From Terriglobia bacterium (GTDB lineage: Bacteria; Acidobacteriota; Terriglobia; JAJPHL01): a DNA stretch of 55,230 bases. Positions 19,693 to 37,990 of this stretch are shown in pieces. The stretch is from contig JAJPHL010000020.1 in NCBI GenBank assembly GCA_021325275.1, forward strand, positions 1-55,230, read 5' to 3'. The position numbers were made by a program, and so were the translations under genes. Numbering within the stretch: the stretch's first letter is position 1; every line of letters starts with the position of its first letter. Below the pieces are notes generated by a model. That model made no database searches, was not told the DNA's origin, and saw nothing but the letters and a program-made list of their open reading frames with translations.

Positions 19693-19700
19693 GAAAAATG

Positions 19701-20164: not shown

Positions 20165-20173
20165 CTTTTTCTT

Positions 20174-21403: not shown

Positions 21404-21413
21404 CGGGGTGACT

Positions 21414-21845: not shown

Positions 21846-21847
21846 CA

Positions 21848-22276: not shown

Positions 22277-22668
22277 AGAAAGGCTTCACCATTCTCGAAG
22301 TGCTGGTCGCCGTGGTGATCCTCGGCAGCGCGGTCGCGGCGATTTCCGGCGTGCTCTCGACCTCGATGCGCAACATCGGACGCGCCGAGGAGTACGAGCG
22401 TGTCACGTTGCTGGCGCGCGCTCAAATGAACGAATTGTTGGCGCTGCCGGTGTGGCGCGACGGCACGCAGTGGAACGGCCAGTGGGCCGGCGACTATCGC
22501 TGGACCGCGCAGGCCAACGCGATTCCTCCGGCCGACCCGCAAGCGGGCTACTTGCTGGTGCGCATGACGCTGGTCGGCATTTGGAAAACATCGCGCGGCG
22601 AGAAAACTTTCACGCTGGAAACAGCGCGGATTCAAACGCGCGACGAAACGGCGCCTTCCCGTCGATGA
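22273..22668 (+). CDS. gspI: Minor pseudopilin GspI
   Basis: A 131-residue protein starting at GTG 22273: leader MKKG then 'FTILEVLVAVVILGSAVAAI', a canonical pseudopilin N-terminus with Glu at +5. A middle part with 'ARAQMNELLALPVW' and the short length agree with GspI of the tip complex I-J-K. It overlaps gspH upstream and gspJ downstream by four bases each. Confidence 0.87.
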   Translation: MKKGFTILEVLVAVVILGSAVAAISGVLSTSMRNIGRAEEYERVTLLARAQMNELLALPVWRDGTQWNGQWAGDYRWTAQANAIPPADPQAGYLLVRMTLVGIWKTSRGEKTFTLETARIQTRDETAPSRR

Positions 22669-23369
22669 ACAGACGTTCCCAACGCGGCGTAACACTGGTG
22701 GAACTGCTCGCAGCGATCACCTTGCTGGGATTCGTGTCGCTGGCGCTGTTGTTCGCCATGCGCATCGGTGTCAACGCTTGGCAGCACGGCGACCGGCGCA
22801 TGGCGGCGGATCGTAGCGTAGTCGCGGCGGCGGACTTGATCTCCGCGCAGCTGGGAGACGCGCGCGCCCACAACGTCGGTTGGGGGCCGCTCGAGCGCCG
22901 GGTGTCGTTTCTGCTCTTCGACGGCGCTGCCGACCGCTTGCAATTCATCACGCACAATTCGGTCGCGGCGCGCGAGCGCGGCGGATGGTGGTTGGCGGAA
23001 TATTGGTTCGAGCACGACGCGCGTAACAATTGCCGTCTGCTTTACAACGAATATCCTTTCCAGTCGGACGCGGACGCGGCGGCGGTGGTCGATCAAGTCG
23101 GTCCCGGCGCGAACGGGTTGCTCGCGGTTCAGTATCGCGCGCCGAGAATCTCGGCGAACACGCGCGTCCTCTATACCGGGATTCACGATTGCGCCTTCGA
23201 GTACCTGATCGAGCCGCAAGATCAACCGGTCTACTGGGGAAAATTTTGGCCCGGCGACAATTACAAGTTGCCGCGCGCCGTCGCGGTGCGTTTTGCGGGT
23301 GAAGGTGTCAGGGGAATCGCGCCGGTCGCCACGGTGGCGATGATCAACGCGCGGGAGGTGTGGCCATGA
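22665..23369 (+). CDS. gspJ: Minor pseudopilin GspJ
   Basis: A 234-residue protein: leader MNRRSQRG then 'VTLVELLAAITLLGFVSLAL', followed by a larger globular part ('VAAADLISAQLGDARAHNVG', 'RLQFITHNSVAARERGGWWL', 'FEYLIEPQDQPVYWGKFWPG', 'LPRAVAVRF'). Its size and position between I and K identify it as the GspJ tip pseudopilin. Start ATG at 22665 overlaps the gspI stop; its own stop overlaps the gspK ATG. Confidence 0.86.
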   Translation: MNRRSQRGVTLVELLAAITLLGFVSLALLFAMRIGVNAWQHGDRRMAADRSVVAAADLISAQLGDARAHNVGWGPLERRVSFLLFDGAADRLQFITHNSVAARERGGWWLAEYWFEHDARNNCRLLYNEYPFQSDADAAAVVDQVGPGANGLLAVQYRAPRISANTRVLYTGIHDCAFEYLIEPQDQPVYWGKFWPGDNYKLPRAVAVRFAGEGVRGIAPVATVAMINAREVWP

Positions 23370-24226
23370 TTCCAGCGTCACGCCAGAAAGGTTCCGCCCT
23401 TCTCTCGGTGCTGTGGATCACCGTGGTTTTGGGATTCGTAGGCATGGCATTGGCGGCGAATGTGCGATCGGAAGTGGAATCGACGCGCTTGCTCGCCGAA
23501 TCGGAGCAGGGATATTTTCTGGCGCGCGCAGGAATCGAAGCGGGTCTGCTGCGCCTGACCACTCCGCCGGCCGATCCGCGGCAAGCGGAAGCGGAAATGA
23601 CTTTTCGCGCCTACGATTTTCAATTTCAAACCGGCGCCGTTCACATCGACTACGTCCCGGCGTCGGCGCTTTACAACGTGAACGTCGCGCCGCCGGGAAT
23701 GCTCTTCGCGCTGCTTCAGGAATTGGGCGCGCCCGACGCCCAGGCGCGCGCCATTGTCGAGCAGTTGAATCAGTATCGTCATCCGAACAAACAACGGGAT
23801 GCCGCGGCGCTGGAATCCATCGACGAATTGCTGACGCTGCCGGCGATGACGCCGGAATTGTTCTACGGCAGTTTTGTGGCGGGACGCCGCCGCCCCGGCG
23901 TGGAAGACGTGTTGGGCGTGTACGGCGCGGGTGAGACGGTGAACGTGAACTACGCGCACATGGAACTGTTGGCGGTGCTGCCGGGAATGAGCGAAGCGTG
24001 GGCGCGGCAATTCGTGGCTCTGCGGCCGTTCCGTCAACTCGACGCGCGGAAGACGCCGCCGAGCGTGTCGCTGGGCGATTCCAACGCCTTCGCGCTGATC
24101 GCGCACGGCCGCGCCAATATCGGCGGCGTGCCGTCGGACATCGAGCGCGCGATTCGCGCCGACTACGTACGGGATCAGAAATCGCCGCGCGGATTGCGCT
24201 TGATCAACTGGCACGAAGTGAATTGA
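23366..24226 (+). CDS. gspK: Tip pseudopilin GspK
   Basis: A 286-residue protein with leader MIPASRQKG then 'SALLSVLWITVVLGFVGMAL'. As usual for GspK, the +5 glutamate of other pseudopilins is absent. Next come 'AESEQGYFLARAGIEAGLLR', a large insertion and two helix-hairpin-helix-like parts ('LNQYRHPNKQRDAAALESID', 'LLAVLPGMSEAWARQFVALR'), the family's SAM-like domain. It caps the pseudopilus and with I and J starts its assembly. ATG 23366 overlaps the gspJ stop. Confidence 0.88.
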   Translation: MIPASRQKGSALLSVLWITVVLGFVGMALAANVRSEVESTRLLAESEQGYFLARAGIEAGLLRLTTPPADPRQAEAEMTFRAYDFQFQTGAVHIDYVPASALYNVNVAPPGMLFALLQELGAPDAQARAIVEQLNQYRHPNKQRDAAALESIDELLTLPAMTPELFYGSFVAGRRRPGVEDVLGVYGAGETVNVNYAHMELLAVLPGMSEAWARQFVALRPFRQLDARKTPPSVSLGDSNAFALIAHGRANIGGVPSDIERAIRADYVRDQKSPRGLRLINWHEVN

Positions 24227-24234
24227 CCACTCCT

Positions 24235-25473
24235 ATGTTGACTTGGAAAACAGCCATCGGGATCGCGGTACGCGGAGAAGATCTGGAGTTTGTGTGCCTG
24301 AAGCGCGGACTCGGCGGCGTGCGCGAAGCCGGACGCACCGTGCTCAGCGGTTTTCGCGCCCGGCGCGCGGATGAAGCGCGCGCGGCGTACGCGGAGTTTC
24401 TGCGGTCGCAGGGATTATCGGCGGCGAACGCGATCGTCGCGCTCCCGCGCCGGGATGTCCTGCTGCGCACACTGGTGCTGCCGGGCGAAGCGTTAAAGTC
24501 GCTTGATAAGGCCATCGAATATCAGGTCGACAGCTTGCATCCGTTTGAAGAAGGCGGCGTCGACTACGCGTACAGTGTCTTGGGCAACTCCAGCGACGCG
24601 GGCCACGTGCTGGCCGCCGTCGTCATGATCGAGAAGAGTGCCGCCGCGTCGTATTACGAATGGTTTTCCACGGCGGGCATTCCGGTTTCCGGGTTCACCA
24701 CTTCGGCCGCCGTGCTGTATCCCCTGGCAATGGAATCGGCGCCGTCGTTCGTGATTTCCAAGAACGGCCAGACCGCGGAAATTTTGGCGGTATCGAGCCA
24801 CAACCTGCAAAGCCGCGAAGTTCCTACCGCGCATCTCGACCGCGAGTTGCCATTGTGCCGCGCCGAGCTGCGTCTCGCGGAAAACGCCGACGTTCGCACC
24901 GTCGAGCAGCCGGACATCGCCTACGCCGCGGCGCTTTCGGCGCTCGAAAAGCGCCCCTTCACGGTGAATCTGCTGCCGGAAGCGCGGCGCGTCTACCAAT
25001 CGCCGTGGACGCATGCGCTCAGTTTCGCGTTGGCGGGCGTGGTGGCGTTGTTGCTCATGGCGATGGCGGCGCGTCCCTCGATTCAGGATTATTTGTATCT
25101 CCGCCGCGTGAACGCGGAGATTCAGTCGTTGGAACCGCAGTATCGCTATATGCAAAAGCTGGAGGGGAAAGAAGGACGTTCGCTGGTCCGCATCACCGCG
25201 CTCGCCGCGTTGCGTGGACGTACGCCGTCGCGCGTTCGAGTGCTCGCGGAATTGACCCGCCTGCTGCCGCCAACGGCGTCGCTGAACGATGCCGATATTA
25301 CCGACGACGCGGTCACGATCAACGGCTCAGCCGATTCGGCCTCCGGATTGTTGCCGCTGCTGGCCAGTTCGCCGCAATTCCGAAATCCCGAGTTTCTCGC
25401 GGGCGTCACCAAAAACAACGAAGGCAAGGAAGTCTTTCGTATCCGCATGCAATTGACGGGAGGCCGGCCATGA
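24235..25473 (+). CDS. gspL: GspL-like / PilM-PilN-type assembly protein
   Basis: A 412-residue protein. The N-terminal ~240 residues are an actin-like PilM/GspL cytoplasmic domain ('TAIGIAVRGEDLEFVCLKRG', 'ANAIVALPRRDVLLRTLVLP', 'KAIEYQVDSLHPFEEGGVDY'). One membrane segment at about 260-280 ('ALSFALAGVVALLLMAMA') leads to a PilN-like periplasmic ferredoxin-fold part ('LYLRRVNAEIQSLEPQYRYM', 'VRVLAELTRLLPPTASLND'). It should recruit GspE to the membrane. I chose ATG 24235; the frame opens earlier, but that section is out-of-frame gspK. Its stop overlaps the gspM-like ATG. Confidence 0.82.
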   Translation: MLTWKTAIGIAVRGEDLEFVCLKRGLGGVREAGRTVLSGFRARRADEARAAYAEFLRSQGLSAANAIVALPRRDVLLRTLVLPGEALKSLDKAIEYQVDSLHPFEEGGVDYAYSVLGNSSDAGHVLAAVVMIEKSAAASYYEWFSTAGIPVSGFTTSAAVLYPLAMESAPSFVISKNGQTAEILAVSSHNLQSREVPTAHLDRELPLCRAELRLAENADVRTVEQPDIAYAAALSALEKRPFTVNLLPEARRVYQSPWTHALSFALAGVVALLLMAMAARPSIQDYLYLRRVNAEIQSLEPQYRYMQKLEGKEGRSLVRITALAALRGRTPSRVRVLAELTRLLPPTASLNDADITDDAVTINGSADSASGLLPLLASSPQFRNPEFLAGVTKNNEGKEVFRIRMQLTGGRP

Positions 25474-26093
25474 GCGTGACGGTTTCCTCCGGCGCGGGAA
25501 TGAGTGCGCGCGATCGCCGTGCCTTGCTGATCCTGGCGCCTTGCGTGGCGGTGATCTTGTTGGTGCGTTTCGTGCTGCTTCCGCTGTGGGACGCGGCGTC
25601 GGATTCCTCGCAGACCCTGGCGGTGCGCGAGAAAATGCTGCACAAGTATCGCGCCGCGCGGAACGCCGTGCCGTCGCACGAGTTGAGCGCGACGTCGCTG
25701 ACCACCGCGCTCGACGACGCCGAGAAAGGCTTGCTGACCTCGCCGACGCCGCCGCTGCAAAGCGCCGAGGTGCAGCAATTGGTCCGCGACCTGGCGTCGA
25801 ACGCGGGCATCCAACTGCGTTCGGTGGAGTTCACCACGCCGAAGGAATACAGCGAGGACTACATGCTGGTCGGCGTGGCGACGCAGTTCAACGCGCCCAT
25901 CGATCAAGCGATGGCTTTCTTGAATGCGCTCGAAGCGTCGCCGCGGATTTTGGGTGTGGATCATCTGCGGATCAACGCGGCGAACTTGCCGGGCATCGGG
26001 AAGGATCCGGGCAAGAAGCAGGTCGCCGTATCGATCGCCATCTCAGGAGTGGCGCGCGTGCCGGCGTCCGAAAGCAAGGTTGCCGCGAAGTAG
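25470..26093 (+). CDS. gspM: GspM-like / PilO-type assembly protein
   Basis: A 207-residue protein with one N-terminal membrane segment (about residues 20-40, 'LLILAPCVAVILLVRFVLLP'), a coiled region ('LREKMLHKYRAAR'-type) and a ferredoxin-like C-terminal half ('VQQLVRDLASNAGIQLRSVE', 'FNAPIDQAMAFLNALEASPR', 'ILGVDHLRINAA'). This is the GspM/PilO layout, the partner of GspL. The family is assigned from architecture and position rather than from a strong motif. It overlaps gspL by four bases and is followed after 9 bp by the GspC-like gene. Confidence 0.78.
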   Translation: MSVTVSSGAGMSARDRRALLILAPCVAVILLVRFVLLPLWDAASDSSQTLAVREKMLHKYRAARNAVPSHELSATSLTTALDDAEKGLLTSPTPPLQSAEVQQLVRDLASNAGIQLRSVEFTTPKEYSEDYMLVGVATQFNAPIDQAMAFLNALEASPRILGVDHLRINAANLPGIGKDPGKKQVAVSIAISGVARVPASESKVAAK

Positions 26094-26102
26094 GAGACTC
26101 TT

Positions 26103-26876
26103 ATGAGAAAACAAAGCTGGATTATCAACTTGGTGCTGGTGGCGCTGGCCGTTGTGCTGGCCATGAAGTTGCGCGCCGACTGGCAGCGCACCAACGCGCG
26201 ACAAAGCGCCGCCGACGCCATCGACAAATCGCCCGCCGCCGCCGGGGCTGCCGCGCCGAACTCGGCGCCCGCGGCGATTCCCGGCGCCGAACTGATCGCG
26301 CAGAACAATCTATTTTCCACCGACCGCAACAACGTTCAGCCGCAGGTCCAAGAGTTGAAGCCGCAGCCGCCCGATCCGCTGCTGCTGGGATCGATGAACT
26401 TCGGCAGCGGGCCGATCGCGTTCATGGTGGACGGCGCGGCGCAACCCAACACGCCTCCGCACTCGGTGCGCATCGGCGAAATGATCGGCGCGTACAAGTT
26501 GACCAAAGTCAGCGACGGTTACGCGATGGTGGAATACGAAGGCGTGGAAAAACGCATCGAGGCGCAGACTGCGCCGCATCAAGACAATCGCCTGGCTCCG
26601 CCGCCGTCGGTTGCGCAGCGGACGGCGCCCGCGCCTCCGCCGATCACCGGCGTGAAGACGGTCGGTCCCACGTCGAACACGAATGTGGCGGTGTTGCCCG
26701 ACAAAGGAACCAACAGTACAGGAAATCCGAATACTCGCTCGTCCTTCGACATGTTTGGACCGGGCGTGCAAGACAACTACCCCACAGGCACGAACCTGGG
26801 CGGCTGGGTGAAAGTCAGCGTGCCGTGGCCGATGGGTGGAACACGAAGCTGGTGGGAAAAGGCGCCAAAACAATGA
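26103..26876 (+). CDS. gspC: GspC-like inner-membrane linker protein
   Basis: A 257-residue protein with one N-terminal membrane segment ('SWIINLVLVALAVVLAMKL', residues ~5-23), an Ala/Pro linker, and a homology-region-like beta domain containing 'LIAQNNLFSTDRN', which resembles the 'NLFG' entry of PulC/GspC HR domains, and 'PHSVRIGEMIGAYKLTKVSD'. The C-terminal ~100 residues are Pro/Thr-rich and contain 'TRSSFDMFGPGVQDNYPTGT'. It probably links the inner-membrane platform to the secretin. Placing C-D last in the operon is the reverse of the enterobacterial order. Its stop overlaps the gspD ATG. Confidence 0.75.
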   Translation: MRKQSWIINLVLVALAVVLAMKLRADWQRTNARQSAADAIDKSPAAAGAAAPNSAPAAIPGAELIAQNNLFSTDRNNVQPQVQELKPQPPDPLLLGSMNFGSGPIAFMVDGAAQPNTPPHSVRIGEMIGAYKLTKVSDGYAMVEYEGVEKRIEAQTAPHQDNRLAPPPSVAQRTAPAPPPITGVKTVGPTSNTNVAVLPDKGTNSTGNPNTRSSFDMFGPGVQDNYPTGTNLGGWVKVSVPWPMGGTRSWWEKAPKQ

Positions 26877-29170
26877 TCCAAACACTGAAGCCTCGCCAAA
26901 TGAGAATCTCTCTGAAGATCGTTTCCGGGCTGCTGCTGGTCGCGTCGTTTGCGCACTCGCAAGTATTGCCGTATCAACTGCGGCCGCAGCCATCGCAACC
27001 GCAACAGACTCCGCCGCCGGCGCCGGCGCAAACTCCGCCGCCGCAAACTCCGCCGGCGCAAACGCCTGCTGCTCCCGCGCCCCAAACCGCCGCGCCCGCT
27101 GTGCCGGATGGCAATGCCAACATCGATCTGCATCTCACCGGCGCCGACCTCATGATGGTGGTCGACGCCATCGCGCGCGAGTTGAAGATGAACTGGGTCG
27201 CCGATCCGGCGATCAAAGGCTCGGTGACGATCAACACCATGGGCAACCTGAAGCGCAGCGACTTGCAACCGCTGCTCATGGCGATCCTCCGCGTGAACGG
27301 TGCGACGGCGGTCGAGAACAACGGCTTGTGGCGCATCATCCCTATTAAGGATGCGAGTCATGCGGCCATCGCGGCGACGCTCGACGCGAAGCAGTTCCCC
27401 ATCGACGATCGTTTGATGCTCGACGTGATCCCGCTGCACTTTGCCTCGGCCGTCGACATGAGCAAGCTCTTGTCGAATTACCTTTCCGACGCCGGCAGCA
27501 TGGTGGTGCACGAGCAAGGCAACATCTTATTGATCACCGACACCAGCCGCAGTCTCGAGCGTTTGGTCGAACTGATCGGCATGTTCGATTCCGATGCCTT
27601 CGCCGGGCAGCGCGTACAACTGTTTCAGGCGAAAAACTCCACCGCCGAGGCCTTGGCGGTGGATCTGCAAACCGTTTTTGCGGCGTACGCACTCTCCGGC
27701 AAGTCGCCAATTCAGTTTTTACCGGTGGAGCGGCTGAACGGTGTGCTGGTCATTAGCGCGAATCCCGCGTCGTTTCCGGAAGTGGCCAAGTGGGTGGACA
27801 AGCTCGACGTAGTGACGCGCAGCGGCGGATTGCGCAACTACGTTTACAAGGTGCAAAACGCCAAGGCCGAGGACATCGCCAATGTCTTGACCCAGCTTTA
27901 CGGCGGTTTCTCCAACAACATGGGCTCGAACCGGAGAGACGAACGGCGCAGCGGGTATCCCAGCGGCGCGCCGAGTATGGGCTCGACCAACTTGGGTAAT
28001 CCCGCGGCCGGAGCGTTCAGTTCGGGCGGCGCGGGTTCCACCATGTTGCAATCGCAGCCGCAACAAATCGGTTCGCCATCCACGAGCAACAGTTTGGCCG
28101 GCGGTGGCTTCGGACAAGGCGGCGGCTTCGGCCAAGGTGCCGCGGCAAACGCGGCGCCCACGCGGCTGGCGGGAACGCCGCAAGCCAACGGAAACGGGCA
28201 GCAGTATTACGGTCCGCGGATCGTGGCCGACATTGTGAACAACTTGCTACTCGTGCAGTGCACGCCGCAAGAGTGGGAAGACATCAAGGCGGCGCTGAAG
28301 GATTTGGATATATTGCCGCGTCAAGTGTTGATTGACGCGAAAGTCTTTGAAGTGGACCTCAACGGCGAATTGGATTTGGGCCTCAGTGCTTTTCTTCAGG
28401 CGCGCGACTCGGCGAATCGGCAATTCCTGGGATCTTTCGGATCGGCGTCGGGCGGCGCGCCGCTCTTGAGCGCATCCATTGGCACGCTGGTTGGACAATC
28501 GCGCGAGATTCTGGCGTTTCTCACCGCGGTCGACAATCGCAGCCGGATCAAAGTGATTTCCGCGCCGTCCGTGCTGGCCAGCGACAATCAAACCGCGCAC
28601 ATCGAAGTCGGCACCAGCATCCCGATTCTTACTTCGGTGGGATATACGGGCGCGCAGCAAACCGGCGGGGGTTCCATTTTCACGAACGGAATTCAGCAGC
28701 AGGAAACCGGCGTGATTCTCACCGTGACGCCGCGTATCAACTCCGGCGGAATGGTCTCATTGGCGATCAGTCAGCAGGTCTCGACGCCTGGTCCGCCTCC
28801 GTCGACGGCCATTCCTTCGCCGACGATCCAGAATCGCGAAGTCGACACGCAGGTCAGCGTGGAAGACGGGCAAACGATCGCGCTCGGCGGCATCATTCAG
28901 GAAACCAGGACGGTCACCAGCAATCGCTTACCGCTGCTCGGCGACATTCCGTGGATCGGCGGGCTGTTCGGTTCCACGACCACCAGTAAAACGCGGACAG
29001 AACTGATCGTCCTGATCACGCCGCACGTGATCCGCACGCGTCATGACGCGGATCAAATGACCGAAGACTTGAAGCACACGCTGAAGCAAGCCGCGCGGAT
29101 CTTGGGCGACACTCCATCGGAGCGCAAGCTCGATGCGCCGGAAAAACCGGAGAAGCCGGAGAAACCGTAA
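26873..29170 (+). CDS. gspD: Type II secretion outer-membrane secretin GspD
   Basis: A 765-residue secretin, start ATG 26873 (the frame is open much earlier but overlaps gspM/gspC). A signal sequence (MRISLKIVSGLLLVASFAHS) is followed by a Pro/Gln/Ala-rich stretch (~residues 38-78), then N0 ('NIDLHLTGADLMMVVDAIAR') and further N domains ('AVDMSKLLSNYLSDAGSMVV', 'LQTVFAAYALSGKSPIQFLP', 'YKVQNAKAEDIANVLTQLYG'), a Gly/Ser-rich insert (~340-430) and the secretin pore domain ending in 'VEDGQTIALGGIIQE' and 'LPLLGDIPWIGGLFGS'. The tail is an acidic-basic PEKP repeat. It forms the outer-membrane channel. Confidence 0.94.
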   Translation: MIQTLKPRQMRISLKIVSGLLLVASFAHSQVLPYQLRPQPSQPQQTPPPAPAQTPPPQTPPAQTPAAPAPQTAAPAVPDGNANIDLHLTGADLMMVVDAIARELKMNWVADPAIKGSVTINTMGNLKRSDLQPLLMAILRVNGATAVENNGLWRIIPIKDASHAAIAATLDAKQFPIDDRLMLDVIPLHFASAVDMSKLLSNYLSDAGSMVVHEQGNILLITDTSRSLERLVELIGMFDSDAFAGQRVQLFQAKNSTAEALAVDLQTVFAAYALSGKSPIQFLPVERLNGVLVISANPASFPEVAKWVDKLDVVTRSGGLRNYVYKVQNAKAEDIANVLTQLYGGFSNNMGSNRRDERRSGYPSGAPSMGSTNLGNPAAGAFSSGGAGSTMLQSQPQQIGSPSTSNSLAGGGFGQGGGFGQGAAANAAPTRLAGTPQANGNGQQYYGPRIVADIVNNLLLVQCTPQEWEDIKAALKDLDILPRQVLIDAKVFEVDLNGELDLGLSAFLQARDSANRQFLGSFGSASGGAPLLSASIGTLVGQSREILAFLTAVDNRSRIKVISAPSVLASDNQTAHIEVGTSIPILTSVGYTGAQQTGGGSIFTNGIQQQETGVILTVTPRINSGGMVSLAISQQVSTPGPPPSTAIPSPTIQNREVDTQVSVEDGQTIALGGIIQETRTVTSNRLPLLGDIPWIGGLFGSTTTSKTRTELIVLITPHVIRTRHDADQMTEDLKHTLKQAARILGDTPSERKLDAPEKPEKPEKP

Positions 29171-29265: not shown

Positions 29266-29279
29266 GGCGCTACATTCTC

Positions 29280-30266
29280 ATGGCCGACGTTTCCGGAAAA
29301 AAGCAGGTGACTTTTTTTCATCCTCAAGCGATCGTGGAAAGCAACTCGATTGGCGAGGGGACCCACATTTCCGCCTTCGCGCACGTCCTTGCGGGCGCGC
29401 GCATCGGCCGCGAATGCCAGATTGGCGATCACGTCTTTATTGAAAGCGACGTCCAGATCGGCCATCACGTCACCATCAAGTGCGGCGTGCAACTGTGGAA
29501 CGGCTTGACCGTGGAAGACGACGTCTTCATCGGTCCGAACGCCACCTTCACCAACGATCCTCCGGTGCATCCATCGCCGGCTTTGGCCCCAACGCCTGCG
29601 CGGACCCCAGCGAGAACCGTTGTCCGGCGCGGCGCGTCCATTGGGGCCAACGCCACGATTCTTCCAGGACTCACCATCGGCGCCGGCGCGATGATCGGCG
29701 CGGGCGCGGTGGTGGTCGGCGATGTTCCGGCGCGCACCGTTGTGGAGGGCAATCCGGCGCGGATCGTCAGTTACATCGGCGCGGCGGTGGAGGTGGAAGG
29801 TCCCTTGGCCGAGCCGCCGCCGCAGGAAGGCGTGCGGGCGTCGCGCGTGAAGGGCGTACAACTCCATCGACTGCCGCAACGGGAAGACTTGCGCGGTCAT
29901 CTTTCATTCGGCGAGGTGCAGCGCCAGATTCCCTTTGAGATCCGCCGCTACTTTTTGGTCTTCGGCGTGTCCGGCGAACACGTACGGGGAGAACACGCCC
30001 ATCGCACGCTGCAGCAATTCTTGATTTGCACGCATGGACGCTGCCACATCGTGGCCGACGACGGCGTGAATCGCGAGGAATTCATTCTCGCCGGGCCGTC
30101 CACCGGTTTGTACCTGCCGCCGATGATCTGGTCGGTGCAATATCGCTTCAGCGCCGACGGCGTTTTGCTGGCGTTTACCTCGGAATACTACGATCCGGAC
30201 GACTATATCCGCGATCACACCGAGTTCTTGGCGCTGGTGCGGGGCTCGGAGGCGGGGGAGATTTGA
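29280..30266 (+). CDS. WxcM-like bifunctional protein: hexapeptide acyltransferase fused to sugar ketoisomerase-type cupin
   Basis: A 328-residue fusion. Residues ~12-170 are a left-handed beta-helix with hexapeptide repeats ('[20 protein letters not shown]', '[20 protein letters not shown]', '[20 protein letters not shown]'), including '[20 protein letters not shown]', typical of sugar N-acetyltransferases. Residues ~185-320 are an FdtA/QdtA-type cupin ('[20 protein letters not shown]', '[20 protein letters not shown]', '[20 protein letters not shown]', '[15 protein letters not shown]'). Known relatives make dTDP-3-acetamido-3,6-dideoxy sugars. No aminotransferase or dTDP-glucose genes are adjacent, so the substrate here is inferred only. 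It lies between gspD and the secreted paralogs. Confidence 0.88.
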
Positions 30267-30737
30267 AAAAACACTATGTGGCCGATGTGTTTTGGCGACT
30301 TTGTGATGCAAAGTGCCGGGAAAGTGCCTATCGAGTAAATGCTTCCCAAAAAAAGGCTTGACACCGCATACCGAAGCTTGGTTTACTGAGAAGCGTCCCG
30401 TGGGTTGGCCTACCGGGACACACGTTAGCGCCCGTTTTGTACCCCGCGCCCGAGCGCCCGTGACTAGGTGGCTAAAAAGCCGTTGACAGCGAACGAAGCA
30501 TATGATAGGTTGTCGACTTTTATAGCCCGGACACGGGTCCAGCCCTAGGGCTGTACCTACGCAATGAAATAAAAGTTTTTCGCAGGACCCTCAATCGTTG
30601 CTGGCCCACCACGACCGTGTGGTAGGCTCGTTACGGCCTTGAGGAAACAACGGACGAAAGAGGACACTCCCCCGGTAGAGGGGCGGCTTCTGAACCAGAT
30701 TTCCAGGAGAACAACGAAGGAGACGGAGAAAAACCAT
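30267..30737. other. Long non-coding leader region before the tandem secreted proteins
   Basis: No convincing gene is present. It contains two TTGACA hexamers (30358-30363 and 30483-30488), a TATGAT (30501-30506) and several GC-rich palindromic stretches (around 30520-30560 and 30600-30640). The region is AT-richer than its surroundings just downstream of 30267 and between 30483 and 30520. It looks like a strong promoter with a long 5' untranslated leader for the gene at 30738. Confidence 0.5.
30358..30387 (+). promoter_or_regulatory. Sigma70-type promoter candidate
   Basis: A consensus -35 TTGACA (30358-30363), an 18-bp spacer and TTTACT (30382-30387). A second candidate is TTGACA at 30483-30488 followed after 17 bp by TAGGTT. 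Either would drive the tandem secreted-protein genes with a long leader. Confidence 0.5.
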
Positions 30738-32300
30738 ATGAGCAAGAAAACAGCCGTAACGAGTTTTCTTATGATTTGCGCCGTGGCTCTTGTCGCAGCG
30801 CCGGCGTTTGGCCAGGGCGTGGCTTTCCAGGCCAGCAGCTTGCCAGTGCAGGTGCGCGGTGAGGGTCTCACGGAGACCATCGGCGCGGTTGTGTTGCAGG
30901 CCACCGGTTCGGGCACAGTCCCGTCTGGATCCAGCATCACGATCGTTTATTCGGGCGCGATCGCCAGCCCGAGTGCATTCACCGCACAGGCAGGTTTGTC
31001 CTGCTCGATCGGCGCCACGCCGTGCACGAATTTTACGGTGAGCGCGACGGGTAGCCAGTACACGGTTCAGGTAAACACCTCGACCTCATTTGTCGCCGGG
31101 AACTACATTGAAGTTTCCCAAATCCGCATGAACATCAATGCCTTGGGATCGGCGACCTCCACGGTGACGGCGACCCTTTCGGGCACCAGCGCTACGCCGG
31201 TGACCAATCCGATCACGTTCACGCAGTCGCAGGTTGTCGTGGCCAGCATCGTCAACCCGTCGGTTAAGGGTTCGGTGGGCAGCACGGTTCCCGCGCTTCA
31301 GACGTGCAACATCGCCGCAGCCAACACGTTCACGGTGACCTTCACTGAGAACTACCCTGCAGCGCTGACCTCCACCGTTGATGAAGGCAACTTCACGGGC
31401 GCGATCTACACGATTACCAATGGCAGCCAGGTGAACGTGGTGGTTTCCAGCGTGCCCTCCGGTTTGTCGGTGCAGGCTCAGACCTACACTGCCAAGGTCA
31501 ACGGTACCACAGTGGGCGGCACCACTGCCCTTGGCGCGGCTGTCTCCGGCGCCCTGACGCTGAACCTGGCCGGCGGCACAGCGGCCTTCCAGACCTCGAG
31601 CGGCGGCGCCCTGACCTATACGTTCTTCGTGACGGGCGATTCTACCGCAGCGATCGAGTCGTTCACCGTTACGTTCGGCATCGGTATTGCCAATAGCGCC
31701 GGCACTGGTTTCAAGGCCTCCAGCCTGCCTTCGCTCGGCACGGTGGTTTCGGCTACGGCGGCTGTGAGTCTGGCACCGAGCAGTGGAGTTGTTTCGTTCG
31801 CCACGAACAATGAGGGCGGCGGCACAGTCGCGAACATCAGCGATTGCGTCACCAACATGCTCTTCCCGTTCGTGACCAACCAGAACGGTTATGACACAAG
31901 CTTCTCGATCGCCAACACGACGAGCGACGATCTGGCCTTCGGCGCCGGCGCCGGCGCGACAGCCCAGAGCGGAAGCTGCACGATGACTCTGTGGCCCACG
32001 ACCGATACGACGCTGACTTCCTCCAGCCCGTTGGGTTCCACGGTTCAATACACCACGCCGACGATCCCCGCCGGTTCGGTGTACGCCTTCTCCATCGGTG
32101 GTAACGGTACTCCCCTTGCCGGCCAGACCGGATACATCATTACGGTTTGCCGGTTCTTGAACGCGCACGGCTTTGCGTTCTTAACCAACGGCTTCGCTCA
32201 AGCGGCTGGTCCGCAGCTCTCCCACGGCTATCTCGGTTTGGTTCTACCCAACCCGGTGGCCGGCCGGACGGCGGCGGGCGGCGAGAGCGCGGTTCAATAA
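30738..32300 (+). CDS. Ser/Thr/Gly-rich secreted protein, paralog 1
   Basis: A 520-residue exported protein, start ATG 30738 (MSKKTAVTSFLMICAVALVA, signal cleaved near 'PAFGQG') with GGAG 9 bp upstream. The mature chain is beta-rich and very rich in Ser, Thr, Gly, Ala and Val, with Cys pairs. A C-terminal block, 'CVTNMLFPFVTNQNGYDTSF' then 'GSCTMTLWPT', 'TIPAGSVYAFSI' and 'GYIITVCRFLNAHGFAFLTN', recalls a conserved C-terminal module of exported proteins in Acidobacteriota and Geobacter relatives. No enzymatic motif is seen. The N-terminal ~155 mature residues are nearly identical to those of the next gene. Likely an abundant surface or secreted structural protein. Confidence 0.82.
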   Translation: MSKKTAVTSFLMICAVALVAAPAFGQGVAFQASSLPVQVRGEGLTETIGAVVLQATGSGTVPSGSSITIVYSGAIASPSAFTAQAGLSCSIGATPCTNFTVSATGSQYTVQVNTSTSFVAGNYIEVSQIRMNINALGSATSTVTATLSGTSATPVTNPITFTQSQVVVASIVNPSVKGSVGSTVPALQTCNIAAANTFTVTFTENYPAALTSTVDEGNFTGAIYTITNGSQVNVVVSSVPSGLSVQAQTYTAKVNGTTVGGTTALGAAVSGALTLNLAGGTAAFQTSSGGALTYTFFVTGDSTAAIESFTVTFGIGIANSAGTGFKASSLPSLGTVVSATAAVSLAPSSGVVSFATNNEGGGTVANISDCVTNMLFPFVTNQNGYDTSFSIANTTSDDLAFGAGAGATAQSGSCTMTLWPTTDTTLTSSSPLGSTVQYTTPTIPAGSVYAFSIGGNGTPLAGQTGYIITVCRFLNAHGFAFLTNGFAQAAGPQLSHGYLGLVLPNPVAGRTAAGGESAVQ

Positions 32301-32359
32301 AGGAGCCGAGTGGAGACTCGGCTCGCAAGAGCTGACGATCCACAAAGGAGAAAAAACAT

Positions 32360-34096
32360 ATGAACAGTTCTAAAATTCAAGGAGGGGCCGAAATGAAGGC
32401 TAAGAACGCAAGGCTTCTGATTAGTTTTATGGCGCTCGCTGTATTCGCGATCGCGGCCGCGCCGGCCTTTGGCCAGGGCGTCGCTTTCCAGGCCAGCAGC
32501 TTGCCAGTGCAGGTACGCGGTGAGGGTCTCACCGAGACCATCGGCGCGGTTGTGTTGCAGGCCACCGGCTCGGGCACAGTCCCGTCTGGATCCAGCATCA
32601 CAATCGTTTATTCGGGCGCGATCGCCAGCCCGAGTTCATTCACCGCACAGGCAGGTCTGTCCTGCTCGATCGGCGCCACGCCGTGCACGAATTTTACGGT
32701 GAGCGCGACGGGTAGCCAGTACACGGTTCAGGTAAACACCTCGACCGCGTTTGCCCCCGGGAACTACATTGAAGTCTCCCAGATCCGCATGAACATCAAT
32801 GCATTGGGATCGGGGACGACGACAGTGACGGCGACCCTTTCGGGCACCAGCGCTACGCCGGTGACCAATCCGATCACGTTCACGCAGTCGCAGGTCGTCG
32901 TGGCCAGCATCGTCAACCCGTCCGTTAAGGGTTCGATTGCTACCAGCCCGACTCCTGTGTTGCAGACGTGCTCGATCGCGGGCGGCGGTTATACCTTCAG
33001 CGTGAAGGCTGGCGAAAACTATCCGGCGGCGGTTACGTCGAGCACGGATGAAACCAACTTCACCGGCGCCATCTACACGATCAGCAACGGCAGCCTTGTC
33101 AACGTTTCGATCGCCAACGTTCCGTCCGGTCTCGCGGTTGCCGTCGGCGGCTACACGGTTACGTTCAACGGTAGCTCCCTGGTGACCACCTCCGGTGGCA
33201 GCACGCCCATCGCGCCACAGGCGCTTGGCTCTCCGCTCTACAACGCCACCACCACGGGCGCCATCTTCAACGGCTCCACGGCGGTTACCACTGCGGCTTC
33301 TTGGCCCGGCAGCTACACGCTGAGCCTCGCCAGTGGCAGCGCGGTCCAAACGTCCTCGGGCGGCACCCTGTCCTGGACGTTCAGCGTGACCGGCGATTCC
33401 ACGAGCGCCGTTGAGGCCTTCACGGTCGGCTTCACCATCGGTTTGCCGACCAGTTCCGGTGCGGCCATTTCCGGCACCACCGGCTCGTTGGCTTCGATCG
33501 GAACCGTTGTGACCGCGACGGCCACGGTTAGCTTGTCTCCGTCCTCCGGCGTCGTTTCCTTCGCCACCAACAATGAAGGCGGCGGCACGGTTGCGACAAT
33601 CGGCGATTGCGTGACGAACCTCCTGTTCCCCTTCTCGACGAACCAGGCTGGCTTCGATACGACGGTCATGATCTCCAACACCTCGGCTGATAAGACTGCG
33701 TTCCCGACGGGCGGTGCGGCGGCTCAGAGTGGCACTTGCACTATGACCTTCTACCCGACCGATCTGACCACGCAGACTTCCAGCTCGTCTGGCACGGCGG
33801 GTACGCCGAGCCAGTTCACCACCCCGACGATCCCGGCGGGCGGAGCTTACTCCTTCGCTCAGTCGACCAGCTCGTTCAAGGGCCAGTCCGGCTATATGTT
33901 CGCCGTCTGCCGCTTCTTGGATGCGCACGCGTTCTCGTTCGTGGTGAATGGCACGCCCAGCACCGGAACGATTTCGCAAGGCCTCTTGGCCCTGGTGATT
34001 CCGAACGGCTCCATCTCCACGGGCCGCTTGGCGAATCCGGGTAACGGTGGCGTTGCCTTCGTCGCCACGGGCAGCTGGGAAGGTCTGGTCCACTAG
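32360..34096 (+). CDS. Ser/Thr/Gly-rich secreted protein, paralog 2
   Basis: A 578-residue paralog of the preceding gene, 59 bp downstream. Two starts are credible: ATG 32360 with AGGAG upstream, and ATG 32393 (MKAKNARLLISFMALAVFAI) with AAGGAGGGG upstream; the second gives a normal-length signal peptide. Bases 32471-32935 match 30810-31274 of paralog 1 with few differences and no gaps. The middle region has diverged and is longer here. The C-terminal module is again present ('CVTNLLFPFSTNQAGFDTTV', 'GSCTMTFYPTD'-like, 'GYMFAVCRFLDAHAFSFVVN'). A strong terminator follows. Confidence 0.82.
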   Translation: MNSSKIQGGAEMKAKNARLLISFMALAVFAIAAAPAFGQGVAFQASSLPVQVRGEGLTETIGAVVLQATGSGTVPSGSSITIVYSGAIASPSSFTAQAGLSCSIGATPCTNFTVSATGSQYTVQVNTSTAFAPGNYIEVSQIRMNINALGSGTTTVTATLSGTSATPVTNPITFTQSQVVVASIVNPSVKGSIATSPTPVLQTCSIAGGGYTFSVKAGENYPAAVTSSTDETNFTGAIYTISNGSLVNVSIANVPSGLAVAVGGYTVTFNGSSLVTTSGGSTPIAPQALGSPLYNATTTGAIFNGSTAVTTAASWPGSYTLSLASGSAVQTSSGGTLSWTFSVTGDSTSAVEAFTVGFTIGLPTSSGAAISGTTGSLASIGTVVTATATVSLSPSSGVVSFATNNEGGGTVATIGDCVTNLLFPFSTNQAGFDTTVMISNTSADKTAFPTGGAAAQSGTCTMTFYPTDLTTQTSSSSGTAGTPSQFTTPTIPAGGAYSFAQSTSSFKGQSGYMFAVCRFLDAHAFSFVVNGTPSTGTISQGLLALVIPNGSISTGRLANPGNGGVAFVATGSWEGLVH

Positions 34097-34120
34097 TTCG
34101 ATCGTTGTCTAAGCTGTAAC

Positions 34121-34158
34121 CGGAAGCGGCTCGATTCGTCGGGCCGCTTCCGTTTTTT
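34121..34158 (+). terminator. Rho-independent terminator
   Basis: A perfect 10-bp stem, CGGAAGCGGC (34121-34130) and GCCGCTTCCG (34143-34152), with a 12-base loop, followed by six T. It lies 24 bp after the second secreted-protein gene and should end that transcript. Confidence 0.9.
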
Positions 34159-34185
34159 CCGCCGCGCCAGAAATGGATTCCACTG

Positions 34186-35016
34186 ATGTCAAAGAACAGT
34201 CTTCCCTCTTCCTTTCGCGGGCTGATCCTCTTCGTTAGTCTCACTATCTTCTGCTCGTCTCCGGCGTGGAGTCAGGCTCTCTCATCTGAGCAGGCGCTGC
34301 GTGCGCGGGTCCAACAGTTCTACACGCACCTGCAGATGGCGCAGTTCTCCGACGCCCTGACGCTGGTCACCAAAGCTACTCGCAACGATTTTCTCAACGG
34401 GCGCCACAATCCGCCGCAAGCTTTCACCCTGGACAAGGTCCGTTTCGATCCGCCCGACGCCCCATCGCCGAAAAAGGCCGAAGTCATCGTCGTGATCGAC
34501 ACCTTCGCGCCGGGTTCCGTTACGCCCGTTAAGATCCCCGAGACTTCCAACTGGGTATTGGAAGGCGGTGCGTGGTGTTTCGAAGCTCCTAAGCCGCACG
34601 TAGCGAGCTTCGGAGATCTTACCAAGGGCGGTCAGAGCAAGTCGGCGGCCCAGGAAGAAGTAACGTTCTCGAATTTCAAGGAAGACATGGGCAAGCTGGC
34701 CATCGGACAAAAAGGCGTAGCCACTTTCTCATTCAAAGTGGTCGCCAGCCATCCCGTGAGCCTGGACGTTTCTACTTTCTGCGACTGCTTGGTCGTCAAG
34801 AACCTCAAGAAGACCTACCAGCCGGGCGAAACAGGCAGCTTCCGCATCGAATTCGATTCGACAAATTACTTGGAGGACTACGGGCAAACCATCGCCGTCA
34901 AGACGATGCCTGGCGGCGGGACCACCAAGCTGCTCGTCACGGGCTTCGTTCGGCGACCCGACGCGCCCAAGCCTGAGAAGGCCGAGACGCCCGAGAAAAA
35001 ACCGTCGGTTCCCTGA
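34186..35016 (+). CDS. Secreted DUF1573-like protein
   Basis: A 276-residue protein with an N-terminal signal (residues ~1-30, ending 'SSPAWSQA'). A SnoaL/NTF2-like first part ('RARVQQFYTHLQMAQFSDAL', residues ~38-130) precedes an Ig-like DUF1573 region ('VTFSNFKEDMGKLAIGQKGV', 'HPVSLDVSTFCDCLVVKNLK', 'YQPGETGSFRIEFDSTNYLE', 'LLVTGFVRR'). DUF1573 proteins are exported and of unknown function. The C-terminus is a Pro/Glu/Lys tail ('PKPEKAETPEKKPSVP'), similar to those of GspD and DinB here. It overlaps prmC if that gene starts at CTG 35013. Confidence 0.75.
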   Translation: MSKNSLPSSFRGLILFVSLTIFCSSPAWSQALSSEQALRARVQQFYTHLQMAQFSDALTLVTKATRNDFLNGRHNPPQAFTLDKVRFDPPDAPSPKKAEVIVVIDTFAPGSVTPVKIPETSNWVLEGGAWCFEAPKPHVASFGDLTKGGQSKSAAQEEVTFSNFKEDMGKLAIGQKGVATFSFKVVASHPVSLDVSTFCDCLVVKNLKKTYQPGETGSFRIEFDSTNYLEDYGQTIAVKTMPGGGTTKLLVTGFVRRPDAPKPEKAETPEKKPSVP

Positions 35017-35852
35017 ATCTGGCAACCGCACTTCGCCAAGCTCACGACTTGCTGCAGCATGGGCAAGTCGCCGCGCCGCAATTTACCGCTGAGTTGCTGC
35101 TGGCCCACGCGGTCCGCGCCGACCGCGTTTACCTGCGCGCCCATTCCGACCGCGAACTAACCGACGTCGAGCAGGTCCACTTCGCGCGATACCTTCGCGA
35201 TCGCCTCGCCGGCGTGCCGACACAATACATTACCGGCCGGCAGGAGTTCTGGGGCCTCGAGATTCGCGTAAACCCGTCGGTGTTGATCCCACGGCCAGAG
35301 ACCGAGCATGTTGTGGAACGATCACTGGCGCTGGCCCGCCGCGAGAGCCTCTCGCGCATCCTGGATTGCGGCGCCGGTTCCGGCTGCATCGCATTGGCCC
35401 TAGCCAGCGAACTCCCTGGCACTTGTATTCTTGCTTCCGACATATCAGCCGCCGCGTTGAACACGGCCGCGGCCAATGCGCAGCGTTTGAACTTGGCGCC
35501 TACCTTCGTATGCGCCGATCTCTTGGAGAGTTTTCGCGACTCCTCCGTGGATCTGCTCGTCTCCAATCCACCCTACATCGCTTTCTCTGATGCGCCCACG
35601 CTGGCGCGGGAAGTTCGCGATCACGAGCCAGCCGCCGCGCTCTTCGCCGGTCCCGATGGCGTAGACGTGTACCGGCGGCTGATCCCCGATGCCGCGCGCG
35701 TGCTTCGTCCCGGCGGTTGGGCGGTTGTAGAGATTGGCCACAACGTCGCCAATGCCGTGCGAGAATTGTTCAGCGCCCCCGTTTGGCGTCCGCTTGGCGT
35801 CGATCGCGATTTGGCCGGCCTCGACCGCGTCATGTATGCGCAACGTGTTTAA
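35013..35852 (+). CDS. prmC: Peptide chain release factor N5-glutamine methyltransferase PrmC (HemK)
   Basis: A class I SAM-dependent methyltransferase with the PrmC signature 'SNPPYI' (NPPY), the SAM site 'ILDCGAGSGCIALALASELP' and 'VLIPRPETEHVVE'. It methylates the GGQ glutamine of release factors. The first ATG/GTG/TTG in frame, TTG 35049, would cut into the N-terminal substrate-binding helical domain. The normal N-terminus ('LNLATALRQAHDLLQHGQVA') reads through from CTG 35013, which overlaps the upstream stop (CTGA) and gives 279 residues, the usual length. Start CTG is therefore inferred. It is probably coupled to the DUF1573-like gene. Confidence 0.88.
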   Translation: MNLATALRQAHDLLQHGQVAAPQFTAELLLAHAVRADRVYLRAHSDRELTDVEQVHFARYLRDRLAGVPTQYITGRQEFWGLEIRVNPSVLIPRPETEHVVERSLALARRESLSRILDCGAGSGCIALALASELPGTCILASDISAAALNTAAANAQRLNLAPTFVCADLLESFRDSSVDLLVSNPPYIAFSDAPTLAREVRDHEPAAALFAGPDGVDVYRRLIPDAARVLRPGGWAVVEIGHNVANAVRELFSAPVWRPLGVDRDLAGLDRVMYAQRV

Positions 35853-35908
35853 CGGCGACCGGCGCTTCGCCGGGAAATCTGTACAATAGTCGCAGAGACT
35901 GATCGTCC

Positions 35909-37990
35909 TTGAAGAAGAAGACTCCATCGAAGCAGAGAACTCAGTCGAGGTCAGCCCCCTCCGCCACCATTGCCGCTGGAGGACCCCAAAGTTCGCTCCG
36001 CTCGCATATGTGGCCCCATCTGCTATTGGTAGCCCTGGCTTTTGGCGTCTATGCCAACGCACTTGGCAACGGCTTTGTCTCCGACGACAACTCTCAACTT
36101 CTGGCCAACCCGCTGGTTACGAACTGGCGGCTCTTCTTCCAGATCTTCCTTCATAACAACTGGGCGTTCACAGGCCAGCAGATCAGCAATTATTATCGGC
36201 CCATCCAAGCGGCGTTTTATCTGCTGTTGTACTATGCCTTCGGTTTCAACGCTTTCATCTTTCACCTGGTGATGGTGTTGATTCACGTTGCGAACACGCT
36301 GCTTATTTATCGCCTCGCTCGGCGATGGTTGCCGTCGGACCGGGCGGCATTGGTCGCAGGAATTCTTTTCGCGGTCCATCCCATTCACAGCGAGGCTGTC
36401 GTCTGGATCGCCGTGCTGCCCGACGTATTGTTGACCTTCGTGGCTCTGACAGCCTTGGGTTTGTTTGTTCGCTGGGAAGCTGCGCCTCGCCGCGGACAAA
36501 TTGCGGTACTCGCGGCGCTATATTTTTTGGCTTTGCTCACCAAGGAACCCGGCGCGATGCTAGCCCCCTTGCTGGCCGGCTACGAATTCTTCTTTTTGGG
36601 ACGGCCCGTGTGGCGTCGGACTCGGACGCAGCCAGGCGATCAGGCTCCGATGCGCCCTCTCCGGGACAACTGGGAGTTCTACGCCTCTCTCACCGGCGTG
36701 TTCGGAATCTACGCACTTTTGCGGATTCACGCCCTCGGTGGGTTCGCGCCTTCGCAAGGTGGTTACAACCACCTGCACGGCAAGGTTCTTCTCCTGAGCG
36801 TAATCTCCATCCTGGGAGAGTATCTCGGCGGCTTGGTGGCTCCGATTCATCTCAACTATTTCCATTTCTTTGAAGCCACCACATCCGTAACGGCCACCGT
36901 GCTCGTCTCGCTAACGGCCGAAGTGGGCATCGTCGCGGCGATCTTCTTGCTGCGTAACGACGGTGCTAAATCGGACTCGGCATTGAGCCGCAACCTACGC
37001 CTCATTTCCTACGGACTTTTTTTCCTTCTCGTTTCCTTGGCGCCGGCTCTCAACATCAACGGTGTGGGCGAAAACGTTGTTGCCGAGCGCTACCTATATT
37101 TTCCGTCCGTCGGCTTCGTAATTGTGGCGGCGGCAGTTTGGGAATGGCTGGCCGCCAAACAACCCAGGATCGCCTGGAGTGTAGTGGCCGCTCTCGTAGT
37201 CGCGTCGATATGGCTGGTGGTGCCGCGCAATCGAGACTGGCACGACGACCTGCGCCTGCTCACCGTCAGCGTCGCAGCCTCACCGAAGTCGGCGACGCTG
37301 CTAGGGAATCTTGGGTCCGTTGAAGCTCAGCGCGGGGACTACGACGCAGCCATCCAGACGGACTTCAAGGCGCTACAAACGCCGGCGCCGCCACTGGAAC
37401 TGGCTTTGTTCCACTACAACTTGGGCAGCGCCTATCTGCACCAGGGGCGCAATCAGGATGCGGTGAGCGAATTGGAGAAGGCCATTGCGTTGAAATCCGA
37501 TTACGCCGAGGCGCGCGTAAACCTGGGGATCGCGCGGGAAGCCTTGGGCGATATTCCGGGGGCTATCGCCGCGGAAGAAGAGGCGTTGGCACTCCGCCCC
37601 AACTATGGCGAAGCGTACAATGAATTGGCTTTGCTTCGCATCAGAGCCAAAGACTATCCCGCGGCGATTACTCTTCTTCAGCGCGCGCTCGCCGTGAATT
37701 CACGACACACCGAGGCCTACATCAATCTCGGCACCGCCTACAACGGCAGTCATCGCTTTCAAGAGGCGTCGGAAGCCTTCCGTAAGGCGATCGAAGTGGA
37801 CCCGGGGCATCCCAGCATTTATATTGCGCACTACGATCTGGGATTGTCGTATTCACATTTGAACTCTCTGGAAGCGGCGGCCTTGGAATTCTCGAAAGCG
37901 TTGCAGTTGAGGCCCGACTATGCGCCCGCCCGGGACGCGTTAGCGCAGACTCAGAACATGCTTCAGCAACAACCGCGCGCCAATCGCTGA
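35909..37990 (+). CDS. TMTC-like GT-C membrane glycosyltransferase with C-terminal TPRs
   Basis: A 693-residue protein. The first ~430 residues contain about ten membrane segments. They carry TMTC/GT-C landmarks: 'GNGFVSDDNSQLLANP' (the D-D motif in the first luminal/periplasmic loop), 'NYYRPIQAAFYLLLYYAFGF', 'VLIHVANTLLIYRLA' and 'LFAVHPIHSEAVVWIAVLPD'. Residues ~450-690 form about seven TPRs ('LGSVEAQRGDYDAAIQTDFK', 'YNLGSAYLHQGRNQDAVSEL'). Eukaryotic TMTCs are protein O-mannosyltransferases; bacterial members are uncharacterised. The start is TTG 35909 before a lysine-rich head; TACAAT at 35882-35887 could be its -10. Possible substrates are the Ser/Thr-rich proteins nearby (inference). 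Confidence 0.8.
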   Translation: MKKKTPSKQRTQSRSAPSATIAAGGPQSSLRSHMWPHLLLVALAFGVYANALGNGFVSDDNSQLLANPLVTNWRLFFQIFLHNNWAFTGQQISNYYRPIQAAFYLLLYYAFGFNAFIFHLVMVLIHVANTLLIYRLARRWLPSDRAALVAGILFAVHPIHSEAVVWIAVLPDVLLTFVALTALGLFVRWEAAPRRGQIAVLAALYFLALLTKEPGAMLAPLLAGYEFFFLGRPVWRRTRTQPGDQAPMRPLRDNWEFYASLTGVFGIYALLRIHALGGFAPSQGGYNHLHGKVLLLSVISILGEYLGGLVAPIHLNYFHFFEATTSVTATVLVSLTAEVGIVAAIFLLRNDGAKSDSALSRNLRLISYGLFFLLVSLAPALNINGVGENVVAERYLYFPSVGFVIVAAAVWEWLAAKQPRIAWSVVAALVVASIWLVVPRNRDWHDDLRLLTVSVAASPKSATLLGNLGSVEAQRGDYDAAIQTDFKALQTPAPPLELALFHYNLGSAYLHQGRNQDAVSELEKAIALKSDYAEARVNLGIAREALGDIPGAIAAEEEALALRPNYGEAYNELALLRIRAKDYPAAITLLQRALAVNSRHTEAYINLGTAYNGSHRFQEASEAFRKAIEVDPGHPSIYIAHYDLGLSYSHLNSLEAAALEFSKALQLRPDYAPARDALAQTQNMLQQQPRANR

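What the first reader, a model, noticed from the sequence alone, without database searches (positions are those of the whole stretch)
29280..37990. Possible secretion-and-glycosylation route for surface proteins
Next to the T2SS operon lie a WxcM-like sugar acyltransferase/ketoisomerase, two Ser/Thr-rich secreted proteins behind a strong promoter and terminator, and a TMTC-like GT-C enzyme with TPRs. Eukaryotic TMTCs O-mannosylate beta-sandwich cadherin domains; the paralogs here are Ser/Thr-rich beta-type proteins. The cluster could make and display O-glycosylated surface proteins. This combination is, to my knowledge, not described as a system.
Basis: inference. Interest (0 to 1): 0.6.

Follow-up and report, generated by a model that had tools for sequence, protein, structure and literature searches.

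The report
Type II secretion locus with glycosylation genes
Next to a bacterial protein-export machine sit two secreted surface-type proteins and a sugar-attaching membrane enzyme; the export machine and the secreted protein stay together in many related bacteria, and in several branches enzymes of the kind that attach sugars to proteins have joined them, which suggests, but does not prove, that the exported protein is sugar-coated first.

Summary
The secreted family (SEC) belongs to the T2SS: gspD lies within 4.5 kb upstream in 24 of 44 loci with enough flank, and an orthologous gspD is in 5 of 6 SEC+ but 1 of 20 SEC- genomes. A TMTC-like GT-C gene lies within 7 kb of SEC in 10 of 52 other SEC+ genomes against 0.47 expected, confined to two families (4 of 6 and 6 of 8) plus the window; 28 genomes of the largest family have none. 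In all four positive f3 loci and part of f8, a lipid-phosphate-mannose-synthase-like GT2 gene lies beside the TMTC genes, a donor-plus-transferase set. The adjacent TMTCs are not one clade. The window is the weakest example: prmC intervenes, no synthase is nearby, and its enzyme is one of 22. Verdict: real T2SS-SEC module with a lineage-restricted, probable protein-glycosylation extension; the acceptor is inferred.

The parts
18100..29170 (+). Type II secretion operon (gspE-like, F, G, H, J, K, L, M, C/N-like, D)
   Evidence: Pfam: T2SSF, T2SSG, N_methyl/GspH, N_methyl, T2SSK, PilN/T2SSL, T2SSM, Secretin + GspD N0; gspE by ORF reading only
29280..30266 (+). WxcM-type bifunctional sugar enzyme (hexapeptide acyltransferase + FdtA ketoisomerase)
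   Evidence: 4mzu E 7e-98 over almost the whole length; not found at other SEC loci
30738..32300 (+). SEC1, secreted tandem beta-sandwich protein, 520 aa
   Evidence: 26.5% S+T
32360..34096 (+). SEC2, paralog of SEC1, 578 aa
   Evidence: AF2 model all-beta, pLDDT 64; structural matches
34121..34152 (+). intrinsic-terminator-like hairpin after SEC2
   Evidence: 14 pairs, 10 G-C, then TTTTTT
34186..35016 (+). DUF1573/Ig-like protein, conserved neighbour of SEC
   Evidence: PF07610 E 4e-11; downstream of SEC in 25 of 67 loci with flank
35016..35852 (+). prmC (release-factor glutamine methyltransferase), housekeeping
   Evidence: TIGR03534 278 bits over cut-off 199; prmC-dinB-cca order recurs in relatives
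35909..37990 (+). TMTC-like GT-C membrane glycosyltransferase with C-terminal TPRs, 693 aa
   Evidence: PMT_2 E 2e-9 and TPRs; DD, YRP, KE and ERxxY motifs

Best explanation
The window holds the core T2SS-SEC-DUF1573 module of Terriglobia plus a lineage-specific sugar extension. SEC proteins enter the periplasm by a signal peptide, fold as tandem beta-sandwich (adhesin/pilin-like) proteins and leave by the neighbouring T2SS as its dedicated surface or extracellular product. In several lineages a TMTC-like GT-C enzyme, with its active site and TPRs on the periplasmic side, transfers a sugar from a polyprenyl-phosphate donor to SEC before export; the linked DPM-synthase-like GT2 makes that donor in f3 and in part of f8, while in the window the donor would be made elsewhere and WxcM would supply an unusual sugar. 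Shown by computation: gene content, SEC-T2SS linkage, enrichment of TMTC near SEC, linked synthase-like genes. Inferred: T2SS export of SEC, topology, the donor, and SEC as acceptor.
For: SEC follows gspD within 4.5 kb on the same strand in 24 of 44 loci with enough upstream sequence; orthologous gspD in 5 of 6 SEC+ and 1 of 20 SEC- genomes (Fisher p 5e-4). TMTC within 7 kb of SEC in 10 of 52 SEC+ genomes, own excluded, expected 0.47; 0 of 40 control prmC loci hold a TMTC-like gene. Repeated, non-orthologous recruitment: SEC-adjacent TMTCs need 9 label changes on the tree, at least 7 forced by well-supported branches. f3 operon: SEC, DUF1573, GT2, TMTC, TMTC, SDR, GT4, one direction, overlapping or within about 35 bp from DUF1573 on; the GT2's best solved relative is dolichol-phosphate-mannose synthase 5mlz (E 1e-12). 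f8 genus g8: DPM-synthase-like GT2 with GtrA/DPMS TM domain (5mlz E 1e-49), Alg9-like GT22, three TMTCs, SEC. The SEC model resembles streptococcal antigen I/II domains and pilins (best Z 10.6).
Against: No TMTC within 7 kb of SEC in f5 (0 of 28 genomes), f7 (0 of 5), f4 (0 of 1), f12 (0 of 1) or f9 (0 of 3; about 9 kb away in two). In the window prmC intervenes, the TMTC-like gene sits inside the prmC-dinB-cca block, its nearest relative is an own paralog on another contig, and no close DPM synthase exists in the genome (three weak GT2 hits). P0006 misses the TMTC DUF1736 model and lacks the TMTC RxD arginine and the EL4 Asp by alignment. SEC S+T does not track TMTC clearly; g8 SECs with adjacent TMTCs have only 15-16%. 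The 7 kb cut was chosen after seeing the loci, and genomes within a family are not independent.
Confidence: 0.45

Rival explanations
1. In this window the TMTC-like gene is an incidental neighbour: one of 22 GT-C/TPR genes, inserted into the prmC-dinB-cca block, acting on something unrelated, while T2SS-SEC-DUF1573 works without glycosylation.
For: 22 paralogs, sister to a paralog on contig C16, prmC between, f5 has T2SS-SEC without TMTC. Chance of a TMTC within 7 kb in this genome is only about 4%, but the finding was picked because of it.
Against: Does not explain the enrichment in f3 and f8 and the linked synthase-like genes.
Confidence: 0.25
2. The linked GT-C and GT genes modify an envelope lipid or polysaccharide (as ArnT- or GtrC-type enzymes do), and the locus is a surface hub; SEC is not the acceptor.
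For: f8 and f9 loci also carry GT4 enzymes, a GFO/IDH dehydrogenase, a hexapeptide acetyltransferase and SDR enzymes as in polysaccharide loci; PMT_2 covers both enzyme types (recalled); the GT22 beside TMTC in g8 belongs to a lipid-linked-sugar family (recalled).
Against: TPR-bearing GT-C enzymes in eukaryotes act on proteins (PMC7801869, abstract and passages read); in f3 the genes run in one direction right behind SEC and DUF1573.
Confidence: 0.2
3. The TMTC-like enzyme modifies the T2SS itself (pseudopilins or GspD) or another exported protein such as the TIG protein of f9.
For: The genes are linked to the whole T2SS operon, so linkage alone cannot name the acceptor.
Against: In G031 three TMTCs lie beside a SEC copy (L163, contig C99) in whose fetched stretch no gsp gene was found, though only 1.1 kb upstream of that SEC is held; the copy beside the T2SS (L164, contig C80) has no TMTC in the 3.6 kb held downstream.
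Confidence: 0.1

Closest known systems
Actinobacterial Ppm1-Pmt protein O-mannosylation (Streptomyces coelicolor; PMC5882110, only the start of the abstract in the listing seen)
   Same: Polyprenyl-phosphate-mannose synthase plus a GT-C protein mannosyltransferase acting outside the cytoplasm
   Different: Here the GT-C enzymes carry TPRs, lie in diderm Acidobacteriota, are linked to a T2SS and one secreted family, and in the window no synthase is linked
Eukaryotic TMTC1-4 cadherin O-mannosyltransferases (PMC7801869, abstract and passages read)
   Same: GT-C core with DD, YRP, KE and ERxxY motifs followed by TPRs; beta-sandwich proteins as putative acceptors
   Different: No DUF1736 match for P0006, RxD arginine and EL4 Asp missing, acceptor and sugar unknown
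Classical type II secretion with substrate genes near gsp genes (recalled)
   Same: Operon with secretin; linked secreted protein
   Different: The linked protein is a tandem beta-sandwich family with a conserved C-terminal E-x-L-x-[HNQ] tail and a DUF1573 neighbour
WxcM / FdtA-type sugar enzymes (4mzu, 2pa7)
   Same: Both domains, near full-length match
   Different: No aminotransferase partner seen beside it

Membership tests
Type II secretion system | gspE/F, pseudopilins, K, L, M and secretin in one operon | tested here: met
   for F, G, H, J-like, K, L/PilN, M, D; gspE by reading the ORF
Type II secretion system | exports SEC | not testable with these tools
   only linkage and co-occurrence
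TMTC (eukaryotic O-mannosyltransferase) | GT-C core followed by TPRs | tested here: met
   PMT_2 at 102-238 and TPRs in the C-terminal third
TMTC (eukaryotic O-mannosyltransferase) | DUF1736 segment (PF08409) | tested here: not met
   absent for P0006 at E 0.1; 2 of 18 members of A2 match, best 5e-5
TMTC (eukaryotic O-mannosyltransferase) | motifs M1 DD, M4 KE, M7 ERxxY | tested here: met
   D59-D60, K212-E213, E393-R394-x-x-Y397 (motifs from PMC7801869)
TMTC (eukaryotic O-mannosyltransferase) | motifs M3 RxD and M5 DW Asp | tested here: not met
   VLPD in place of RxD; LNYFHF where relatives have LDY
TMTC (eukaryotic O-mannosyltransferase) | transfers mannose to protein | not testable with these tools
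   no assay
Ppm1-Pmt type O-mannosylation | lipid-phosphate-mannose synthase linked to the transferase | tested here: not met
   not in the window and no strong hit in the genome; synthase-like genes linked in relatives of f3 and f8
WxcM-like | hexapeptide acyltransferase fused to FdtA ketoisomerase | tested here: met
Adhesin/pilin-like tandem beta-sandwich (SEC) | fold of antigen I/II C-terminal domains or pilins | tested here: inconclusive
   Z 8-10.6 on a model with pLDDT 64; no sequence family

The most novel reading that the evidence does not exclude
Acidobacteriota hold a T2SS-coupled protein O-glycosylation system: TMTC-type GT-C/TPR enzymes, fed by a linked polyprenyl-phosphate-mannose synthase, decorate one dedicated beta-sandwich surface protein in the periplasm before the neighbouring T2SS exports it, a bacterial counterpart of the TMTC-cadherin pathway that has been assembled several times from different TMTC paralogs.
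Probability: 0.3. Interest if true: 0.8.

Novelty: new variant of a known kind. Interest (0 to 1): 0.58.

Why it matters
It gives a concrete candidate acceptor, donor synthase and transferase for bacterial TMTC-like enzymes, which are abundant (22 in this genome) but whose acceptors I know of no study naming; and it names a conserved candidate product of an acidobacterial T2SS. Seven library searches listed no paper that I recognised as describing the combination; most listed papers were seen only as listings.

Tried and rejected
Single-protein search with P0003 in 61 genomes gave only 10 carriers; the profile A1 in 151 class genomes gave 56, some of them N-terminal domain only. A first TMTC model was built from a small set that included doubtful ORFs and was replaced. 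Considered and rejected: that TMTC near prmC is conserved (0 of 40 prmC loci); that SEC-adjacent TMTCs are one orthologous clade; that Ser/Thr-richness tracks TMTC linkage; that WxcM is part of the conserved locus. AF2 of the TMTC-like protein had a poorly modelled GT-C half, so I ran no fold search with it; the A2 profile found no PDB sequence match. No Rfam match at 29100-38100. The second Fisher test used hand-entered locus numbers (10 of 62 against 0 of 40) and is not relied on. In one search I merged split matches by hand (G018 16 to 14, G076 4 to 3).
Full report
What is there. The window (55,230 bases; contig C59 of a 6.86 Mb genome, 97.6% complete) carries a T2SS operon ending at 29170, a WxcM-type enzyme at 29280-30266, two secreted paralogs here called SEC1 and SEC2 (30738-32300, 32360-34096), a terminator-like hairpin (34121-34152), a DUF1573/Ig-like protein (34186-35016), prmC (to 35852) and a TMTC-like GT-C/TPR gene (35909-37990), then dinB and a cca-type gene (named by eye). 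Records of SEC relatives carry Acidobacteriota names: Terriglobia, Bryobacterales, Solibacter, group 11 and others; one matching contig is labelled Acidimicrobiia in its title. The labels f1, f3, f8 and so on are the unnamed family numbers of the genome search tool.

SEC family. SEC1 and SEC2 match no Pfam or NCBIfam family. A nine-sequence profile finds relatives in 56 of 151 class genomes, some by the N-terminal domain only; a stricter search of 247 genomes drawn from the phylum finds 6 (own included). The C-terminal half is best conserved (FPFVTNQ-type block). Of 74 C-terminal-domain ORFs counted, 55 end in E-x-L-x-[HNQDSR] and 7 more have E five residues from the end; 12 do not. An AF2 model of SEC2 from 17 sequences has pLDDT 64 and is all-beta; aligned to the PDB it resembles tandem beta-sandwich surface proteins, best the streptococcal antigen I/II C-terminal domains (Z 10.6, rmsd 6.2 over 264 residues) and Gram-positive pilins (Z about 9). 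Z values of this size are middling, so this is a hint of an adhesin-like build, not a family assignment.

SEC goes with the T2SS. In 24 of 44 loci with at least 4.5 kb upstream, gspD lies within 4.5 kb upstream on the same strand (f8 5 of 5, f9 2 of 2, f7 2 of 3, f3 1 of 2, f5 10 of 24, f12 0 of 2, named 4 of 6). In 26 genomes searched with the window's GspD, a full orthologous match (E below 1e-60) occurs in 5 of 6 SEC+ genomes (not G140) and in 1 of 20 SEC- genomes (G026); the rest give only weak secretin hits. DUF1573 lies within 2.5 kb downstream in 25 of 67 loci with flank (f3 5 of 6, f4 1 of 1, f7 4 of 5, f8 6 of 8, f9 3 of 3, f5 6 of 30, f12 0 of 2, named 0 of 12).

TMTC near SEC. I counted TMTC-like GT-C genes in 53 SEC+ genomes and their distance from SEC. 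Own genome excluded, 10 of 52 genomes have one within 7 kb of SEC; 0.47 are expected from gene number and genome size (P about 3e-11 if genomes were independent, which they are not). By family: f3 4 of 6, f8 6 of 8, f1 the window; f5 0 of 28, f7 0 of 5, f9 0 of 3, f4 0 of 1, f12 0 of 1. The cut of 7 kb was set after looking; at 5 kb one f8 genome (G045, 6.4 kb) drops out. In two f9 genomes three TMTCs start about 9 kb from SEC (positions). With the same model, 0 of 40 prmC loci carry a TMTC-like gene. On a tree of 83 TMTCs the adjacent ones need 9 label changes (at least 7 forced by supported branches), so the linkage arose several times with different paralogs; the window's gene is sister to a paralog on another contig.

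A donor synthase. In f3 the genes follow each other in one direction: SEC, DUF1573, GT2, TMTC, TMTC, SDR, GT4 (L170; the GT2 also in L161, L168, L171). The GT2 resembles archaeal AglJ and dolichyl-phosphate hexose transferases below their cut-offs, and its best solved relative is dolichol-phosphate-mannose synthase (5mlz, E 1e-12). In f8 genus g8 (L163) the order is GT2 with a GtrA/DPMS membrane domain (5mlz E 1e-49), an Alg9-like GT22, three TMTCs, and SEC facing them; parts recur in L156, L166 and L195. In f9 (L149, L151) SEC-DUF1573 is followed by a TIG protein (L149), a GFO/IDH dehydrogenase, a hexapeptide acetyltransferase, an SDR enzyme and a GT2-like frame. Of the 40 prmC control loci none has the synthase, GT2 or Alg9 relatives; 5 have an SDR hit. 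This is the strongest reason to read the extension as a protein-glycosylation set, but polysaccharide loci hold some of the same gene types.

The window itself is the weakest case. prmC lies between; prmC-dinB-cca is an old gene order in relatives and the TMTC-like gene sits inside it; no TM-type DPM synthase is found in the genome (three weak GT2 hits). P0006 keeps DD, YRP, KE and ERxxY but not the RxD arginine nor the EL4 Asp described for TMTCs (motifs from PMC7801869, passages read), and not the DUF1736 model. SEC Ser+Thr content is 22.4% with and 19.9% without adjacent TMTC (11 and 48 loci, p 0.07).

Judgement. T2SS-SEC-DUF1573 as a functional unit: about 0.8. TMTC as a glycosyltransferase for SEC in f3 and f8: about 0.5. 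The same in the window: about 0.35. The literature library listed no paper that I recognised as describing the combination; a 2016 survey reports very few T2SS outside Proteobacteria (PMC4793230, passages read).

Noticed in passing
L016:1381-2391 (own genome, contig C51, - strand): A SEC-type C-terminal domain relative sits at the end of a protein with an N-terminal TIR_2 domain (E 2e-7) and no evident signal peptide: an unexpected, seemingly cytoplasmic use of the domain.
   Followed up: partly
window 30810-31290 and 32471-32950: SEC1 and SEC2 share about 94% of bases (449 of 480) just behind the signal peptide, then diverge abruptly: recent gene conversion or duplication.
   Followed up: partly
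window 19719-20135: A GxxExxY-type ORF (named from memory, not searched) lies between gspE and gspF.
   Followed up: no
L011 (contig C4) and L012 (contig C3), own genome: SEC N-terminal domain at the start of long ORFs, a TIG-type match in L011, on short contigs of 7.3 and 3.9 kb.
   Followed up: no
L195:7642-8694, L164:12175-13227, L156:14866-15918, L216:20534-21508, L137:3-746: A cyclase (PF04199 in L195) and look-alikes by eye recur near SEC or TMTC loci of family f8.
   Followed up: partly
own genome G000: 22 TMTC-like GT-C genes, the most among the 73 genomes counted.
   Followed up: no
L163:3285-9116 (G031): Three TMTC-like genes in a row that group closely on the tree, next to a SEC copy with no gsp gene in the fetched stretch (1.1 kb upstream held).
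   Followed up: partly
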